From IMG/VR virus record IMGVR_UViG_3300036846_000379, positions 1 through 20,457 of that record: DNA of 20,457 nt; one strand, given 5' to 3'. Source of the stretch: a virus. Each line of letters begins with the position of its first letter. Positions within the stretch are counted from its first letter, which is position 1. Made by a program: the position numbers and the translations under genes. The notes under the pieces were generated by a model, which searched no databases, had not been told where the DNA came from, and saw nothing but the letters and a program-made list of their open reading frames with translations. Below are positions 7,217 to 14,056 of this stretch, piece by piece.

Positions 7217-7520
7217 CGGCACCCCGGACGCGCCGGAAGGCCCCGAAGGGCCTCCCGGTCGGTACCACCTGATAAGCGGTAGCTATCGCAAGCACACCCA
7301 GTGTACGCGAACCGGGGACCGTCGCAAGCGGTCCCCGAGTGTTGCGGCGGAGCGTGTGGGATTCGAATCCACGGCTGCTTGCGACAGCAACTCGCTTATG
7401 AGGCGGTTCCGTTAGACCTCTCCGGCAACGCTCCGTCAACACCCATTGTACAAGGGGGGTGTGACAGCCAAGCGTCATCGGCTGGCGCTGATATCCGGGG
7501 TTATCGGTACTAGCGGTCAC
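7209..7520 (-). CDS. Questionable ORF that contains the tRNA gene
   Basis: A GTG at 7520 overlaps the stop of the GNAT gene (GTGA) and has GGGAGG four bases upstream. The frame begins VTASTDNPGYQRQP, with the DNxxY start motif, and ends at 7209 in GGCTAG overlapping the ATG of the next gene. Start and stop signals therefore look real, but the middle of the frame reads straight through a promoter, a tRNA and a hairpin, and its sequence after residue ~15 is Arg/Thr-rich without protein character. It may be a short leader whose reading frame was interrupted by insertion of the tRNA unit. Confidence 0.3.
   Translation of the reverse strand: MTASTDNPGYQRQPMTLGCHTPLVQWVLTERCRRGLTEPPHKRVAVASSRGFESHTLRRNTRGPLATVPGSRTLGVLAIATAYQVVPTGRPFGAFRRVRGADG
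7271..7287. repeat. Diverged GATAA/TATC dyad without a start codon
   Basis: The plus strand reads GATAAGCGGTAGCTATC, close to the start-associated dyads at 9398, 8235 and 7967, and on the minus strand it is followed by CAGG as at 8235. No gene starts here; it lies just beyond the hairpin downstream of the tRNA. Confidence 0.4.
7313..7337 (-). terminator. Hairpin downstream of the tRNA
   Basis: CGGGGACCG (7313-7321) and CGGTCCCCG (7329-7337) pair perfectly across the loop TCGCAAG. The hairpin begins 10 bases after the tRNA 3' end in the direction of transcription. No U-tract follows, as is common for actinobacterial terminators, so termination is plausible but unproven. Confidence 0.55.
7348..7434 (-). 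tRNA. Unusual class II tRNA-like gene with CAU anticodon
   Basis: 87 bases. The acceptor stem GGAGCGT/ACGCTCC is perfect, followed by a G discriminator and no encoded CCA. The D-arm has CCG/CGG. The anticodon loop is CTCATAA, giving CAU. The anticodon stem has only three simple pairs and needs a bulged A to extend. A long variable arm (GCTG-TCGCAAG-CAGC) makes it class II. The T-loop is TTCGAAT, but the T-stem's closing pair is A-C instead of the near-universal G-C. Class II form with GGAG and G73 is serine-tRNA-like, while CAU is read as Met or Ile2. It may be a functional but odd tRNA, a decoy, or a decaying gene. Confidence 0.75.
7445..7471 (-). promoter_or_regulatory. Probable tRNA promoter
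   Basis: On the minus strand TTGGCT (7471-7466), a 15-base spacer and TACAAT (7450-7445) lie just upstream of the tRNA, whose 5' end is ten bases beyond the -10 box. The spacer is short, but the -10 match and placement fit a sigma70-type promoter giving the tRNA its own transcript inside the operon. Confidence 0.5.
7490..7505. repeat. Start-associated dyad, copy at the 7520 start
   Basis: Plus strand GATAT-CCGGGG-TTATC, one base short of a perfect GATAA-N6-TTATC dyad. It codes the DNPGY part of the frame starting at 7520. A further shortened copy (GATATCCGGGGT, then ACTAGCCAT) lies at 7192-7216 at the start of the next gene. Confidence 0.6.
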
Positions 7521-8065
7521 GATGCCTCCCACAACGTGCGCGCCACGCCACCCGCGCCGACAGGATGACGCAGGTGGGCCAGCTTCACCGATGACGCGAC
7601 CCACGATTCACGCGCTGGGCGTTCACCGACAATCCGCCAGGCGGCGGCGCGCAGACTGGAGCCGGATTCGCCGGCCTGGGTGTAGGTGATGAGCCGCCGG
7701 TAGCCGAGTGCTCGCGCGGCACGCCATGCCGCGGCGTAGAGCGCGCTATTGGCGTTGGGCGTGCCATCGGTGCACGTCCGGTTCACTTCTAGAGTTCGGC
7801 CGTCGTCGTAGTGGCGTGCTACCGGTCGGCCGACCATGGCCACGCCGACCAGCTGGTCAGCGGTGGCGACGCCGAGACAGAACCGGCAGCCGCGCGGCGG
7901 GTCGTGGTGACGGTGGTGCAGGGCGACGAATGCCGACGCTTGGCGGAACGTCACCGGGACGATGTCCAGATAAGTGCCGTTATCTGTCATAGCGCTACTT
8001 GCTCCCCGGTAGCAGATCGGGCAATCCGGCGTCTCGTGAAGGATGCACGGCGCATGGGTGATCAT
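7517..8065 (-). CDS. XF1762 / Mom-like GNAT-fold acyltransferase
   Basis: 182 residues from ATG 8065, which overlaps the previous stop (ATGA) and has AGGA four bases upstream. The first 25 residues hold C-x7-C-x2-C (PCILHETPDCPIC), a possible zinc site. The GNAT-type body follows: 'VTFRQASAFVALHHRHHDPP', 'ADQLVGVAMVGRPVAR', 'LEVNRTCTDGTPNANSALYA', 'GYRRLITYTQAGESGSSL'. This pattern (His-rich first helix, 'GV..vGrP.aR', 'lE.nR......pNa.S.L') matches the XF1762 family of phage proteins and resembles phage Mu Mom, a GNAT-fold enzyme that modifies adenine in DNA. An internal ATG at 7990 carries the module's start motif (MTDNGTYLD) and is the main alternative start. Position after a DpdA-like gene suggests a DNA-modification role (inference). 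Confidence 0.65.
   Translation of the reverse strand: MITHAPCILHETPDCPICYRGASSAMTDNGTYLDIVPVTFRQASAFVALHHRHHDPPRGCRFCLGVATADQLVGVAMVGRPVARHYDDGRTLEVNRTCTDGTPNANSALYAAAWRAARALGYRRLITYTQAGESGSSLRAAAWRIVGERPARESWVASSVKLAHLRHPVGAGGVARTLWEAS
7967..7986. repeat. Start-associated dyad, copy at internal ATG 7990
   Basis: The plus strand CAGATAA-GTGCCG-TTATCTG is a perfect 7-bp dyad with a 6-base spacer, immediately following the ATG at 7990 in the minus direction. It codes TDNGTYL and is the most symmetrical of the set. Confidence 0.8.
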
Positions 8066-8256
8066 GGGGTCCTGCGCCGGGCTGGATGTAGGACGAGCCA
8101 CGTCGGGTCGTTACCTCGGCGACAGATGATTTCTTCGATCAGACGGGCCACGACGGACGCCGGCCACATCTCATCGGGTTGGCCGACTGCAATCCGATGC
8201 ATCCCCCGCAGTGCGCCGTCGCCGTACTGCTCCTGATAAACGTCATTATCGGTCAT
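8062..8256 (-). CDS. 64-residue protein of unknown function in the modification module
   Basis: ATG 8256 overlaps the stop of the DpdA-like gene (ATGA), and its own TGA overlaps the ATG of the GNAT gene at 8065. It begins MTDNDVYQEQYGDGALRGMH, with a perfect copy of the start-associated dyad. The remainder contains an amphipathic helix (PASVVARLIEEIICRRGND) and ends in basic residues. No family is recognised. Coupling on both sides implies it is made together with the two putative modification enzymes. Confidence 0.65.
   Translation of the reverse strand: MTDNDVYQEQYGDGALRGMHRIAVGQPDEMWPASVVARLIEEIICRRGNDPTWLVLHPARRRTP
8235..8250. repeat. Start-associated dyad, copy at the 8256 start
   Basis: The plus strand GATAA-ACGTCA-TTATC is a perfect 5-bp dyad with 6-base spacer, placed six bases into the 64-residue gene and coding TDNDVY. 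Confidence 0.8.
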
Positions 8257-8888
8257 ACGAATTCCAGTTGGGTTGGTTGGTCGAGCATGGCGACGAGTTG
8301 GCGGATCATCTCCGGGCGCGGCCCGTGCTTGACCAGCGTGCCGTCCGCGCTATCGGCGCCGAAGATCCGCGCCGACCCGAACCGGACCGCGGTGTTGACC
8401 CGGCCGACATGCGCGTGCCGGCCGCGGGCTTTGGCGGCGGCAACGTGCGCGGCCGCCCACCGCGACAGCTTCCAAGCCGTATCGCCGCCGATGAACACCG
8501 CTTCGGCGTCGACCGGCACGTCGTCGGGGGTCGAGCCGTTCTGGCACACGAAAGCCGGGCGCAGACCCCGGCCGGCCACCTCCTCATGCCATTCGTGCCA
8601 CATTTCGAGCGTGGCCGGATGGTTGCCGGCCAGATCTGTCGGGTCGAAGCGATCAGGGACGACCGCGAACAGGCACCGCTCCGGCCGGAACGCCGAGCGG
8701 TCGAGGGTGCGTTGCCAGGCGTCCGCGTGGAAATGGCCGCCGAAACAGCCGTTGTCAACGGCGTACCACGGGTACAGGTCGATCTGACGGTACAAACCAT
8801 TACCGGGCTGGATCATCAGGCCGAGATCCGCGCGGCCGCGCGCTACCGCCTGGGTGTCGGCGTTGCTCACTCCGGTCAGGTAGATCAC
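8253..8888 (-). CDS. DpdA-like / TGT-fold 7-deazaguanine transglycosylase (putative)
   Basis: 211 residues with a GTG start overlapping the transporter's TGA. The sequence reads like a compact TIM-barrel enzyme of the queuine/archaeosine transglycosylase (TGT) superfamily: 'DLGLMIQPGNG', 'YPWYAVDNGCFGG' (family 'aiDnG.F'), 'RCLFAVVPDRFDPT', 'GLRPAFVCQNGSTPDDVPVD', 'AEAVFIGGDTAWKLS' (family 'ifiGG...wKl'), then 'RHAHVGRVNTAVRF'. Phage members of this group (DpdA types) exchange guanine in DNA for a 7-deazaguanine. It is shorter than classic TGT (~370 residues), as phage forms can be. The preceding gene is a queuosine-precursor transporter and the phage lacks biosynthesis genes (no QueC/D/E or FolE seen), so salvage of host or medium precursor is implied. 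Family identity is by motif memory, not by search. Confidence 0.6.
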   Translation of the reverse strand: MIYLTGVSNADTQAVARGRADLGLMIQPGNGLYRQIDLYPWYAVDNGCFGGHFHADAWQRTLDRSAFRPERCLFAVVPDRFDPTDLAGNHPATLEMWHEWHEEVAGRGLRPAFVCQNGSTPDDVPVDAEAVFIGGDTAWKLSRWAAAHVAAAKARGRHAHVGRVNTAVRFGSARIFGADSADGTLVKHGPRPEMIRQLVAMLDQPTQLEFV

Positions 8889-9427
8889 GCCGCGACCGCC
8901 CAGCGGTTGACGGTCCGCCGGCCGATCAGCCGTACCGGCAGGAATGCCAGGGTGACCATGACTTTGGCGGCGGTGGTGGCCTGCCAGTGGGCGGTCGACC
9001 CGAACGCGATCTGGAGGAAGATCAGCGTGTCGATGGCGGCGCCGACGGTGTTGGCCAACAGGAAGGCGGCGATCACCTGGCCGCGCTCGATCAGCGGCGT
9101 GAACGCGGCCCAGTCGATCAGCTCACCGCAGCCGAACGCCACCGCGGACGCCACCGCGAACGACGGCGACACCCGCCACGACAGCAACGCCCCCGCCGCG
9201 ATGGCGGGCAGCACCCACCAGCGGCCGAAGGTCAGCTGGATGACGTCGCGGAAGACGAACACCGCGCCGGCGAAGTAGGTGCCGGCCGGTACCACCCCGA
9301 ACGGCCCCCAGATGAACCCGAATCGGCTGATAGCCCAGTTGGCCAGGACGATGGCGCCGACATAGCCGGCCAGGGCGGCCGCGCCGACGGCGAGTCGCGG
9401 ATAAGCCGGATTATCCGGACTAGCCAT
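8885..9427 (-). CDS. yhhQ: VUT-family (YhhQ-type) queuosine precursor transporter
   Basis: 180 residues beginning MASPDNPAYPRLAVGAAALA. ATG 9427 lies in an ATGGCTAG overlap with the nuclease stop. About six hydrophobic segments are visible (LAVGAAALAGYVGAIVLANW, PFGVVPAGTYFAGAVFVFRD, WWVLPAIAAGALLSW, FAVASAVAFGCGELIDW, QVIAAFLLANTVGAAIDTLI, MVTLAFLPVRLIG). The signatures 'vpaGt..f...F.frDviq...Gr' and 'fgcgEliDw....', with 'l.aNtvga.iDtliFl.iaFg', are typical of VUT (PF02592) proteins, which import preQ0/preQ1 across the inner membrane. A phage-borne copy next to a DpdA-like gene suggests it feeds DNA modification. It is shorter than bacterial YhhQ (~220), lacking N-terminal residues. Confidence 0.85.
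   Translation of the reverse strand: MASPDNPAYPRLAVGAAALAGYVGAIVLANWAISRFGFIWGPFGVVPAGTYFAGAVFVFRDVIQLTFGRWWVLPAIAAGALLSWRVSPSFAVASAVAFGCGELIDWAAFTPLIERGQVIAAFLLANTVGAAIDTLIFLQIAFGSTAHWQATTAAKVMVTLAFLPVRLIGRRTVNRWAVAA
9398..9417. repeat. Start-associated dyad, copy at the VUT transporter start
   Basis: The plus strand CGGATAA-GCCGGA-TTATCCG is a perfect 7-bp dyad with 6-base spacer, beginning ten bases into the transporter gene and coding the DNPAYP motif. Confidence 0.8.
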
Positions 9428-9815
9428 CGTCGGGGTCGTCGTCGTAGTGCTCCACGGCCTGGAGGACGCGTACCTCAGTAATCGCACCGACTCGGCGGGC
9501 ACGTCGAATCGTCTCACCGAGGATGCCCCCAAGTAGATGGGTCATAAAGAGCATGAACGGGCGCTGTTCGCCAAGTTGCTGGAGGTCGTACGCGACAGCG
9601 ACCGCCTTCAGGACGTTGTCTTTGCCCGATGGTCTGTCACCCCAAGTCTTGACCTCGATCAACCATTCCTCGCCAGTCACTGGGTGTATTGCGGTGTGGT
9701 CGATACGGTGCCCGTGGCATGGAACGTGAGCGCCAGTGAACTTCCAGCCCTCTCGCTCTAGGACCGTCCTGGCATCGCGTTCGCCATCTCGTCCCGATTC
9801 GCTAGCTCGACTCAT
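9420..9815 (-). CDS. PD-(D/E)XK nuclease-like protein
   Basis: 131 residues starting MSRASESGRDGERDARTVLE. ATG 9815 overlaps the methyltransferase stop (ATGA). The core reads 'GHRIDHTAIHPVTGEEWLIEVKTW', which fits a PD-(D/E)XK active site with D39, E54 and K56, preceded by a helix with E12/E20 and followed by 'LKAVAVAYDLQQLGEQRPFMLF'. This resembles Holliday-junction-resolvase or restriction-like folds in phage early operons. The substrate is unknown: recombination, host DNA breakdown or a restriction-type partner for the adjacent methyltransferase are all possible. Longer upstream versions only shadow the methyltransferase gene. Confidence 0.65.
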   Translation of the reverse strand: MSRASESGRDGERDARTVLEREGWKFTGAHVPCHGHRIDHTAIHPVTGEEWLIEVKTWGDRPSGKDNVLKAVAVAYDLQQLGEQRPFMLFMTHLLGGILGETIRRARRVGAITEVRVLQAVEHYDDDPDDG

Positions 9816-10603
9816 TTCGTGAACACCAGCAGCATTGAGGAAACCTCCCGAGCCGTCTTCTGCTCGCGCGGCGAGCCGTCCAGGTTCGTCAGCGTCTGCG
9901 GGCCGCCCTTGCCGGTAGAGATGTGGTGGAACCGGTCGACCAGACGCAGCCCCAGATCCTCGCCCTTCGCCACCATGTGGAACGTGTTCCACACCTTCCG
10001 GCCAGACTCGACGTAGTCCATGCACTTCACCAGGAGAAAGCCCTTCGGTCGCAGGATGCGGGCACACTCGGTCTGACCGTCATCCATCAGCCGCCGGATC
10101 GCACGCCAGCCCTTCAGTTCCCCGAGCCCGTAGGCCCGATAGAACGCGTCGATGCTCGACGTCTCCCGGTTCCCGGTTGAGATGTAGGGCGGATCGAAGC
10201 ACACCACCGGAACCGTGTCGGTCTCCTCTGGACGGTCCCGGAAGTCACCCTCGCCCCGGATCAGGAGGCTCGGGGTGCATCGGGTCCACCACTTCCCCTC
10301 GCCGTAGGTCACGTCCAGGACCCAGTCGTCCGGACCGCCGAGGTAGCCCAGCTCAGCAACCCGGGCGATCAGCTTGCCGTTGGTGCCCCGGATGACTGAG
10401 GGGACCGGCCCCGAATCCCGTGACATCTTGTCACGGTTTCTTTCTCGGTCCTTCCGTGCACGGGCGGCGCACCGTTCAGTGCAATACCGCTGGTTTGGTC
10501 GGCCGGTGATCACTCGGTTGCATCCGGCGCAGCGGCGCTTGACCTGTCGCCGCTCTGCGGGTGTGGGCGGTGCTAGGTCAAGGAGTTGCGGGTCGGGGCT
10601 CAT
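9812..10603 (-). CDS. DNA methyltransferase (DPPY type) with N-terminal zinc finger
   Basis: 263 residues, start MSPDPQLLDLAPPTPAERRQ at ATG 10603, overlapping the previous stop with GGGGGG seven bases upstream. Residues 25-45 hold C25-x2-C28 and C41-x3-C45 (CAGC and YCTERC), a zinc-ribbon like those in phage HTH/DNA-binding proteins. The catalytic part has a motif-I-like 'WVLDVTYGEGKWW' (94-106) and the motif IV DPPY at 137-140, the signature of amino-methyltransferases that make N6-methyladenine or N4-methylcytosine. Motif I is degenerate for SAM binding ('VTYGEG' instead of 'FxGxG'). It probably protects phage DNA from host restriction and is coupled to a nuclease-like gene downstream. Confidence 0.8.
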   Translation of the reverse strand: MSPDPQLLDLAPPTPAERRQVKRRCAGCNRVITGRPNQRYCTERCAARARKDRERNRDKMSRDSGPVPSVIRGTNGKLIARVAELGYLGGPDDWVLDVTYGEGKWWTRCTPSLLIRGEGDFRDRPEETDTVPVVCFDPPYISTGNRETSSIDAFYRAYGLGELKGWRAIRRLMDDGQTECARILRPKGFLLVKCMDYVESGRKVWNTFHMVAKGEDLGLRLVDRFHHISTGKGGPQTLTNLDGSPREQKTAREVSSMLLVFTK

Positions 10604-11037
10604 CGCCATTCCCCCCAGTGGCTGTGGTCGCCGCCGGTCCAGTCTTTGACCCATCCTGAGCCGAAGGCGAAATGCTGCGTTCCTTCTTTCTTCTTTCTAC
10701 TTCCTTCTGTCGCGCGCTGTGCGCGGGGTGGCGCGCAGAAACTAGGGGGGTAGCGCGCAGAGCGCGCGGGGTCCGGGGGGCTGTGGAAAAGATATTCACA
10801 GGACCGGCCGTACCTATGGATGACCTCTAGGAGCCCGGCGGTTTCGAGGCGTTGCACGGCCCTGCGGACAGTGCCGGGGTGCAGGCCGGTCTCGCGGGCG
10901 ATGGTGGCCACACCGGGCCACGCCCGGCCTTCCCGGTTGGCGTGAGTGGCGATCACGACCAGGACATGGTGGGCGGTGGCGTCGCCGGCCGGGACGTGAG
11001 CCTCACGGGCGGCCCACAGGACGTGATCCCAGCTCAT
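10600..11037 (-). CDS. Helix-turn-helix protein, probable replication initiation type
   Basis: 145 residues from ATG 11037, overlapping the previous stop (ATGA); GTG 11046 is an alternative. A winged-helix domain at about residues 20-80 reads 'HHVLVVIATHANREGRAWPGVATIARETGLHPGTVRRAVQRLETAGLLEVIHRYGR', here split as 'TIARETGLHPGTVRRAVQRL' for the recognition region. The C-terminal half is low complexity and basic. Proteins of this kind precede replication genes in many phages and often contain the origin in their coding sequence; this gene carries GCGCGC-rich repeats and two DnaA-box-like 9-mers. No helicase or polymerase is encoded, so it would rely on host replication proteins. Confidence 0.65.
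   Translation of the reverse strand: MSWDHVLWAAREAHVPAGDATAHHVLVVIATHANREGRAWPGVATIARETGLHPGTVRRAVQRLETAGLLEVIHRYGRSCEYLFHSPPDPARSARYPPSFCAPPRAQRATEGSRKKKEGTQHFAFGSGWVKDWTGGDHSHWGEWR
10712..10800. other. Candidate replication origin inside the HTH gene
   Basis: GCGCGC-containing repeats (GGCGCGCAGAAAC and AGCGCGCAGAGCG among them) are followed by TGTGGAAAA (10782-10790) and ATATTCACA (10792-10800), two DnaA-box-like 9-mers in opposite orientation (consensus TTWTNCACA). A pyrimidine-rich, less GC-rich stretch lies beside it at about 10680-10711. The arrangement is origin-like but unproven. Confidence 0.4.
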
Positions 11038-13872: not shown

Positions 13873-14056
13873 TGGCACCACAAGTGGCGCCAAGATTGGC
13901 AAAAACCCAGCAGCCCCAACGGGATTCGAACCCGTGTTCCCACCTTGAGAGTGTGAACCGCAATCCCCCTACCAGCACCTATGTGTCCCTGGCGCCACCA
14001 TCTGGTGGCACCAGCCACGCTCAGGGGATAGGGGGGTGGCACCACAAGTGGCACCA
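13873..14056. other. attP: attP: tRNA-Glu-like core flanked by integrase arm sites
   Basis: The core at about 13911-13952 (minus strand) reads as the 3' half of a tRNA: anticodon loop CTCTCAA, GGTGG, a four-base variable loop, T-arm ACGGG-TTCGAAT-CCCGT and TGGGGCT. This fits tRNA-Glu(CUC). The 5' half is absent. Six copies of TGGCRCCA flank it in three pairs: 13873/13885, 13990/14006 and 14037/14049. Paired repeats around a tRNA-derived core beside int are what arm-type binding sites look like. attB is predicted to be the host tRNA-Glu(CUC) gene. Confidence 0.8.

What the first reader, a model, noticed from the sequence alone, without database searches (positions are those of the whole stretch)
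7517..9427. Candidate salvage-based DNA hypermodification module: YhhQ transporter, DpdA-like enzyme, small unknown protein and Mom-like GNAT
Four overlapping genes form one unit. The VUT/YhhQ family imports queuosine precursors (preQ0/preQ1), and DpdA-type TGT relatives insert 7-deazaguanines into DNA. XF1762 proteins resemble the GNAT-fold Mu Mom DNA-modifying enzyme. No biosynthesis genes for 7-deazaguanine are present, so the phage would depend on imported or host precursor. A GNAT beside DpdA suggests the inserted base, or adenine, is further acylated. This pairing is one I do not know as characterised, and the 64-residue coupled protein would be a new component.
Basis: partly seen in the sequence, partly recalled or inferred. 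Interest (0 to 1): 0.85.

Follow-up and report, generated by a model that had tools for sequence, protein, structure and literature searches.

The report
Phage import-and-insert DNA disguise genes
A small actinophage-like virus appears to carry a transporter and an enzyme that together import an unusual base and swap it into DNA, plus a separate Mom-like DNA-modifying enzyme; both tricks are known, but the recurring transporter-plus-compact-enzyme cassette and its stacking with Mom look like a new variant worth a mass-spectrometry test.

Summary
Observation confirmed: four overlapping minus-strand ORFs at 7517-9427, the last four of eight overlapping genes in a 20.4 kb actinophage-like record. 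Interpretation partly supported. (1) 8253-8888 is a compact relative of phage DpdA: TIM-barrel model (pLDDT 88), profile match to phage DpdA E 1.8e-9. (2) 8885-9427 is a distant YhhQ/VUT relative (E 9.5e-9 against E. coli YhhQ). VUT beside compact DpdA recurs in 60 of 179 other sampled loci; none of 29 loci with QueC nearby has VUT. This fits 'make it or import it', but the tree-corrected test lacks power. (3) 7517-8065 is Mom-like: Mu Mom (8bv8) is the best solved match to its model, and the serine changed in that 'inactive mutant' is invariant here. (4) The four genes are not a conserved unit: XF1762 is in 2 of 50 compact-DpdA virus records, and in 48 of 50 XF1762 records no DpdA was found. 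The 64-residue protein has no relative found. Best reading: two independent anti-restriction DNA modifications stacked in one operon, one fed by salvage. Acylation of the inserted base is not excluded but has no direct support. Nothing has been measured chemically.

The parts
8885..9427 (-). VUT/YhhQ-like polytopic membrane protein, 180 aa, predicted importer of preQ0/preQ1
   Evidence: Pfam Vut_1 31.1 bits, cut-off 27.2; hhalign of its family with E. coli YhhQ E 9.5e-9; hydrophobic segments; below NCBIfam equivalog cut-offs
8253..8888 (-). compact DpdA-like transglycosylase, 211 aa
   Evidence: AlphaFold2 pLDDT 88.2, TIM barrel; TGT among the best solved matches, tied with other barrels; hhalign with phage DpdA E 1.8e-9; invariant D45, D79, H160, D182
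8062..8256 (-). 64-aa ORF of unknown function, no relative found
   Evidence: the one frame of its strand without a stop there, codon-position G+C 0.70/0.47/0.69; no match; PHROG best E 0.29
7517..8065 (-). XF1762-family Mom-like GNAT, 182 aa
   Evidence: NF045478 196.7 bits, cut-off 50; PHROG 1384 Mom-like 6.2e-41; model's best solved match 8bv8 Mu Mom; S107 aligned with Mom S124 and invariant
9420..9815 (-). NERD-like protein (possible nuclease), 131 aa, upstream in the same overlapping run
   Evidence: Pfam NERD 19.1 bits, below cut-off 22.1; overlaps VUT by 8 nt
9812..10654 (-). DNA-methyltransferase-like protein, 280 aa, with a DPPY motif (by eye)
   Evidence: PHROG 24333 DNA methyltransferase 1e-16; PADLOC MTase_II 2.3e-6; no Pfam match

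Best explanation
The segment holds two separate DNA-modification devices side by side in one overlapping operon. Device 1: the VUT protein brings a 7-deazaguanine base (preQ0 or preQ1) into the infected cell, and the compact DpdA-like enzyme exchanges guanines in DNA for it by TGT-type base exchange, shielding phage DNA from restriction. The phage lacks the precursor genes searched for and would depend on salvage or the host. Device 2: the XF1762 protein is a Mom-type acyltransferase that modifies adenines independently. With the nearby methyltransferase-like gene they stack several protections. Shown here: homology, predicted fold, gene order, recurrence of the VUT-DpdA pair, its separation from QueC in the sample, occurrence of XF1762 without DpdA. 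Inferred: transport, substrate, base exchange on DNA, adenine as the XF1762 target, protection. The 64-aa ORF is left unexplained.
For: DpdA: profile of 46 compact proteins against 10 phage DpdA proteins E 1.8e-9, motif for motif over 123 columns; two unrelated control pairs gave E 0.19 and 0.26; TIM-barrel model, TGT chains at Z 13.5-13.9 over 200-204 residues. VUT: hhalign with YhhQ E 9.5e-9; [quoted passage not shown] Pairing: VUT within 3.5 kb of compact DpdA in 47 of 92 virus/phage loci and 13 of 87 genome/plasmid loci, window apart; 58 of 61 VUT ORFs, window included, lie within 50 nt of DpdA or overlap it (longest frames); the association changes at least 18 times on a quick DpdA tree. 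Make-or-import: QueC nearby in 29 of 180 loci, VUT in 61, both in 0, Fisher 2e-6; 50 records: VUT 30, QueC or QueD 12, both 1, Fisher 4e-5. Mom. Independence of XF1762.
Against: The barrel fold is common: pyruvate kinase and epimerase chains tie with TGT; in Foldseek TGT ranks fifth behind a lyase and a transaldolase. VUT is below NCBIfam's equivalog cut-offs. Make-or-import weakens when relatedness is taken out: p 0.009 by 75% clusters; 0.005, 0.015 and 0.47 at 70, 60 and 50% clusters; the tree-paired test had too few informative pairs (median p 1). 9 of 50 records have neither VUT nor QueC/QueD. 74 of 87 genome/plasmid loci have no VUT nearby. Seuratvirus-type phages with the longer DpdA have both routes. 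I saw no nucleoside data for a phage with the compact enzyme.
Confidence: 0.68

Rival explanations
1. One coupled pathway: DpdA inserts preQ1 (which bears a primary amine) and the XF1762 GNAT acylates it, making a new hypermodified 7-deazaguanine.
For: VUT, compact DpdA and XF1762 lie close together, in different orders, in three elements: the window, the Dactylosporangium vinaceum chromosome (L213) and a Streptomyces sp. 11x1 plasmid (L267). Record overlaps exceed independence: phages 2 found, 0.01 expected; plasmids at least 1 (60 of 73 XF1762 records listed), 0.015 expected.
Against: 48 of 50 XF1762 virus records gave neither compact nor long DpdA; 48 of 50 compact-DpdA records gave no XF1762; of 27 genomes with compact DpdA 4 have XF1762 over its cut-off, one of them known to lie beside it. 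The serine tied to Mom activity is kept, suggesting Mom's own reaction. The closest XF1762 relative lacks the pair at the same place. Some overlap is expected for accessory anti-restriction genes of mobile elements; the two phage records are two Synechococcus phages with equal match values, so probably one event.
Confidence: 0.1
2. The compact enzyme acts on tRNA, not DNA: phage-supplied queuosine-type tRNA modification with an imported base.
For: Relatives were deposited as 'tRNA-guanine transglycosylase' or 'queuine tRNA-ribosyltransferase'; TGT shares the predicted fold.
Against: It matches DNA-acting phage DpdA by profile. The comparison with E. coli TGT is not a fair contrast: a single TGT sequence fails against both the compact and the long DpdA profile. 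The TGT zinc motif (recalled) is absent: cysteines only at 48, 72, 115. Neighbours in the window are methyltransferase-, nuclease- and Mom-like, and DNA methyltransferases recur near compact DpdA in small numbers of clusters (names by eye).
Confidence: 0.12
3. The genes are relics or cargo without a present DNA-modification role; VUT only feeds the host's queuosine pathway.
For: No biochemical data; 64-aa ORF without relatives; VUT missing near many compact DpdA genes.
Against: 17 invariant columns over 46 compact DpdA sequences, repeated VUT pairing, intact overlapping frames.
Confidence: 0.1

Closest known systems
'DpdA-only' phages of Hutinet et al. 2019 (e.g. Mycobacterium phage Orion, Salmonella phage 7-11)
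   Same: DpdA without preQ0 synthesis genes; host supply or uptake proposed; some phages carry YhhQ
   Different: the compact ~210-aa enzyme and its repeated direct pairing with VUT are not described in the parts read; that paper saw no correlation of YhhQ with a phage group
Seuratvirus-type 7-deazaguanine cluster (Escherichia phage CAjan, Enterobacter phage EC151)
   Same: DpdA with a VUT-type preQ0 transporter (PMC8310023 passages)
   Different: these phages also make preQ0 and have a longer DpdA (306 aa in the Seuratvirus slur01)
Bacteriophage Mu Mom (8bv8)
   Same: GNAT fold, best structural match, aligned serine S124/S107 and histidine H58/H51
   Different: XF1762 is shorter; its upstream small ORF has one cysteine and no Com identity; target and acyl group untested
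Jumbo phage vB_PaeM_PA5oct (review PMC7824862, passages)
   Same: momylating enzymes and a deazaguanine system in one phage, read there as multiplicity against several restriction systems
   Different: jumbo genome with a synthesis/incorporation system, not a 20 kb phage with one overlapping operon

Membership tests
Phage DpdA (DNA 7-deazaguanine transglycosylase) | profile similarity to known phage DpdA | tested here: met
   hhalign prob 96.3, E 1.8e-9 over 123 columns; controls E 0.19, 0.26
Phage DpdA (DNA 7-deazaguanine transglycosylase) | TGT-type TIM barrel | tested here: met
   model pLDDT 88.2; TGT Z 13.5-13.9, tied with other barrels
Phage DpdA (DNA 7-deazaguanine transglycosylase) | conserved Asp, Asp, His, Asp in order | tested here: met
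   D45, D79, H160, D182 invariant in 46 of 46; invariant D37, D73, H155, D174 in 10 of 10 DpdA; the last pair lies beyond the hhalign stretch and was matched by eye
Phage DpdA (DNA 7-deazaguanine transglycosylase) | inserts a 7-deazaguanine into DNA | not testable with these tools
   needs LC-MS
tRNA TGT | zinc-binding cysteine motif (recalled) | tested here: not met
   211 aa with cysteines only at 48, 72, 115
VUT / YhhQ family | Pfam Vut_1 over its cut-off and similarity to YhhQ | tested here: met
   31.1 bits vs 27.2; E 9.5e-9 vs E. coli YhhQ
NCBIfam queuosine precursor transporter equivalogs (TIGR00697, NF008406) | curated cut-off | tested here: not met
   18.6 of 50.95 and 18.2 of 252 bits
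VUT / YhhQ family | transports preQ0/preQ1 | not testable with these tools
   needs uptake assay
XF1762 family | NF045478 cut-off | tested here: met
   196.7 bits vs 50
Mom | Pfam Mom cut-off | tested here: met
   28.7 vs 27.1 bits, only just; the Streptomyces 11x1 relative scores 16.8, below; hhalign of XF1762 with Mu Mom alone is weak, prob 4.5, E 0.009
Mom | Mom-like GNAT structure | tested here: met
   8bv8 ranks 1-2 by Foldseek, E 4.3e-8 and 1.4e-7, next 6.7e-6; Z 15.1 over 151 residues, tied with three other GNATs at 14.2-14.7
Mom | serine S124 (S124A called inactive in the title of 8bv8) | tested here: met
   aligned with S107, invariant in 22 of 22; assumes the 241-aa numbering, in which residue 124 is a serine
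Mom operon | upstream zinc-finger Com (zinc finger recalled) | tested here: not met
   64-aa ORF has a single cysteine; no relative found
Mom | modifies adenine in DNA | not testable with these tools
   needs LC-MS

The most novel reading that the evidence does not exclude
The imported base inserted by DpdA (preQ1, whose aminomethyl group is a natural acyl acceptor) is acylated in DNA by the XF1762 GNAT, giving a hypermodified 7-deazaguanine that I do not know as described, with the 64-aa protein as an accessory; actinobacterial phages, plasmids and chromosomal elements would share this salvage-acylation cassette in shuffled gene orders.
Probability: 0.09. Interest if true: 0.82.

Novelty: new variant of a known kind. 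Interest (0 to 1): 0.45.

Why it matters
If right, a 20 kb phage spends about a tenth of its genome on two unrelated base modifications, one of which works only if the cell can take up or make a base the phage cannot. The recurring VUT plus compact DpdA cassette gives a sequence signature for salvage-dependent 7-deazaguanine DNA on phages, plasmids and chromosomes, makes the modification status of such phages testable with isolates already deposited (Phegasus, Majeke, Aoka, ReqiPine5), and would refine the 2019 statement that YhhQ shows no correlation with a phage group.

Tried and rejected
Rejected: that overlap alone proves a four-gene unit (the overlapping run is eight genes long). Rejected as unsupported: the 64-aa ORF as a conserved partner (no relative in phages; none in viral contigs by pattern; best E 0.30 in the loci fetched by then; against the 58-aa ORF at the same place in L094 its score was reached by 477 of 500 shuffles). 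An ORF ending at or near an XF1762 start was found in 62 of 84 rows and is of varied kind; this scan was permissive, had no chance control, and its 84 rows hold the window twice (as window and L007).

Led nowhere: sequence search of solved structures with the DpdA profile (best E 0.033, no TGT) and with XF1762 (best E 0.078); E. coli TGT as a single sequence against either DpdA profile; PADLOC for five of the six proteins given. Papers not held: DOIs 10.1093/nar/gkad657, gkt573 and gkaa319, recalled as the phage 7-deazaguanine, DNA-modification survey and Mom papers; nothing is taken from them. Paper searches: 'XF1762' 0 papers; 'VUT family' with 'DpdA' 0; 'Mom', '7-deazaguanine', 'phage', 'acetyltransferase' as whole words 0; 'DpdA', 'Mom', '7-deazaguanine', 'phage' 3 (listing only, none read); 'DpdA', 'YhhQ', 'phage' 5, of which I read Hutinet 2019 in part. 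So the pairing could be in print outside this library.

Dropped rows: L045 (same contig as L003) and L007 (the window's own); one search's counts still hold both, so I quote. L246 gave no DpdA match. For whole-record tests I gave 50 of the virus/phage compact-DpdA loci (mostly records of 15 kb or more; 92 loci) and 50 of the 80 XF1762 loci. The search for related loci kept the best 80 per call, so the loci are a sample ranked by similarity. Of the 30 VUT records, 4 score below the Pfam cut-off; the one overlap record, G026, has only a 69-position QueC match. The local 'QueC' family was named by eye; 8 of its 29 loci lie in records tested with PF06508 and all 8 matched.
Full report
What is there. 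The window is a 20,457-base virus record whose ends share a 148-nt direct repeat with one mismatch. Its terminase is at best 34.7% identical to those of Arthrobacter phages. Four overlapping minus-strand ORFs lie at the stated place, preceded by a NERD-like protein, a methyltransferase-like protein, an HTH/replication-like protein and a 69-aa ORF, all overlapping. QueC and QueD models find nothing in the record.

The 8253-8888 protein. Pfam and NCBIfam are silent and PHROG 15826 has no function. Of 50,697 phage records 20 hold a relative, several annotated 'DpdA-like tRNA-guanine transglycosylase'. An alignment of 46 proteins gave a confident model. Its solved matches are TIM barrels: TGT is prominent but tied with others; among viral models, phage queuine tRNA-ribosyltransferases rank 2, 4 and 24. 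The deciding test is the profile comparison with ten longer phage DpdA proteins: E 1.8e-9 over 123 columns; the final aspartate motif lies outside that stretch and was matched by eye. Negative controls gave 0.19 and 0.26. Arthrobacter phage Sonali and Vibrio phage R29Z carry both a long DpdA and this compact form, so the compact form need not be a simple substitute.

The 8885-9427 protein. Pfam Vut_1 over its cut-off and a profile match to E. coli YhhQ of E 9.5e-9, but below NCBIfam's equivalog cut-offs. Phage relatives include the annotated preQ0 transporters of CAjan and EC151; EC151's authors suggest that theirs raises preQ0 in the cell (PMC8310023, passages).

The pair. In 180 loci with compact DpdA (the window, 92 virus/phage, 87 genome/plasmid; a sample ranked by similarity, not a census), VUT lies within 3.5 kb in 61, in 58 of those within 50 nt or overlapping if the longest frames are taken. 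After grouping DpdA at 75% identity it is 42 of 96 clusters, and the association changes at least 18 times on a quick tree. Of the 20 phage records with compact DpdA, at least 15 have VUT; Sonali, R29Z and Ssp-JY42 have none, and Sonali and R29Z carry QueC and QueD. In 50 records VUT occurs in 30 and QueC or QueD in 12, with one overlap (Fisher 4e-5). Locally, QueC 29, VUT 61, both 0 of 180 (Fisher 2e-6). Against it: significance falls to 0.009 by clusters, to 0.005, 0.015 and 0.47 with other groupings, and the tree-paired test is uninformative. Hutinet et al. had proposed host supply or uptake for DpdA-only phages and saw no correlation of YhhQ with a group; the pattern here concerns the compact subfamily. 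Phages such as EC151, with preQ0 synthesis genes and a transporter, have both routes.

The 7517-8065 protein. NCBIfam XF1762 (196.7 bits), PHROG Mom-like, Pfam Mom just over its cut-off; against the single Mu Mom sequence the profile match is weak (E 0.009). Its model (pLDDT 81.7) finds the crystal structure of Mu Mom first, by Foldseek with a clear gap and by VIA at Z 15.1, tied with three other GNATs. The serine whose change the title of 8bv8 calls inactive aligns with S107, invariant in 22 of 22 XF1762 proteins. Mu Mom modifies adenine (PMC7824862 passage).

Are they one system? XF1762 is found in 2 of 50 compact-DpdA records. Of 50 XF1762 records, two gave weak partial matches to the compact model, and these two are long DpdA; in 48 neither was found, though records may be fragments. 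Of 27 genomes with compact DpdA, 4 have XF1762 over its cut-off. The nearest XF1762 relative, contig L094 (86% identical), has relatives of the window's 69-aa and HTH-like genes upstream but no match to the methyltransferase-like, NERD-like, VUT, DpdA or 64-aa genes; it is only 4 kb long. So the modules can move separately. Yet they meet again in actinobacteria: Dactylosporangium vinaceum has a methyltransferase, XF1762, VUT and DpdA in that order on one strand (L213); Streptomyces sp. 11x1 has XF1762, on the other strand, about 1.2 kb from VUT-DpdA on a plasmid; genome G336 has both on one contig about 42 kb apart. Among 394 genomes of that class 6 have compact DpdA, 9 have XF1762 over its cut-off and 2 have both, one of them the seed; without it 1 is found and 0.10 expected, p 0.10. 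Overlap exceeds independence in phages and plasmids, but few events are independent and anti-restriction genes gather on mobile elements anyway. A jumbo-phage review reports momylating enzymes and a deazaguanine system together in PA5oct and reads it as multiplicity.

Mechanism, with marks. Import of preQ0/preQ1 (inferred from homology), TGT-type exchange into DNA (inferred from homology and invariant residues), restriction shielding (inferred from CAjan, PMC6884629), independent adenine acylation by XF1762 (inferred from Mom). The NERD-like and methyltransferase-like genes upstream are suggestive company only.

Verdict. Real and coherent, resting on known kinds of enzymes; the cassette of VUT with compact DpdA and its stacking with a Mom relative is a new variant.

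Noticed in passing
L004, L010, L016, L020, L024, L026, L080, L281 and 13 other loci; separately L011 6598-7515: A gene that looks PP-loop/PAPS-reductase-like (by its SGG-type motif; Pfam gives only 17.3 bits for L024 and nothing for L004 and L281) recurs within a few kb of compact DpdA in 21 of 180 loci (15 of 96 clusters; 8 loci also have VUT). Rhodococcus phage ReqiPine5 has a true PAPS-reductase match (53 bits) next to its VUT-DpdA pair. It could be a tailoring enzyme.
   Followed up: partly
window 7346-7434 (-): ARAGORN calls an 89-nt tRNA-Met (CAT); by eye it has a long variable arm, which is odd for a CAT anticodon.
   Followed up: no
window about 13900-13990: A tRNA 3'-half-like stretch with a T-arm sequence lies next to the integrase gene: probable attP (read by eye).
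   Followed up: no
L009 6001-6618 and 8988-9878; L012 4767-5351 and 2638-3588: Sonali and Vibrio R29Z each carry a long DpdA and a compact DpdA, suggesting two targets or substrates.
   Followed up: no
L181-L253: Compact DpdA is scattered through bacterial genomes (Caballeronia, Paraburkholderia, Nonomuraea, sphingomonads and others), with VUT close by in 7 of the 80 genome loci; context not studied.
   Followed up: no
window 9420-9815: The NERD-like protein upstream of VUT might be a nuclease that spares modified DNA; another nuclease-like family (by eye) recurs near compact DpdA in 6 of 96 clusters.
   Followed up: no
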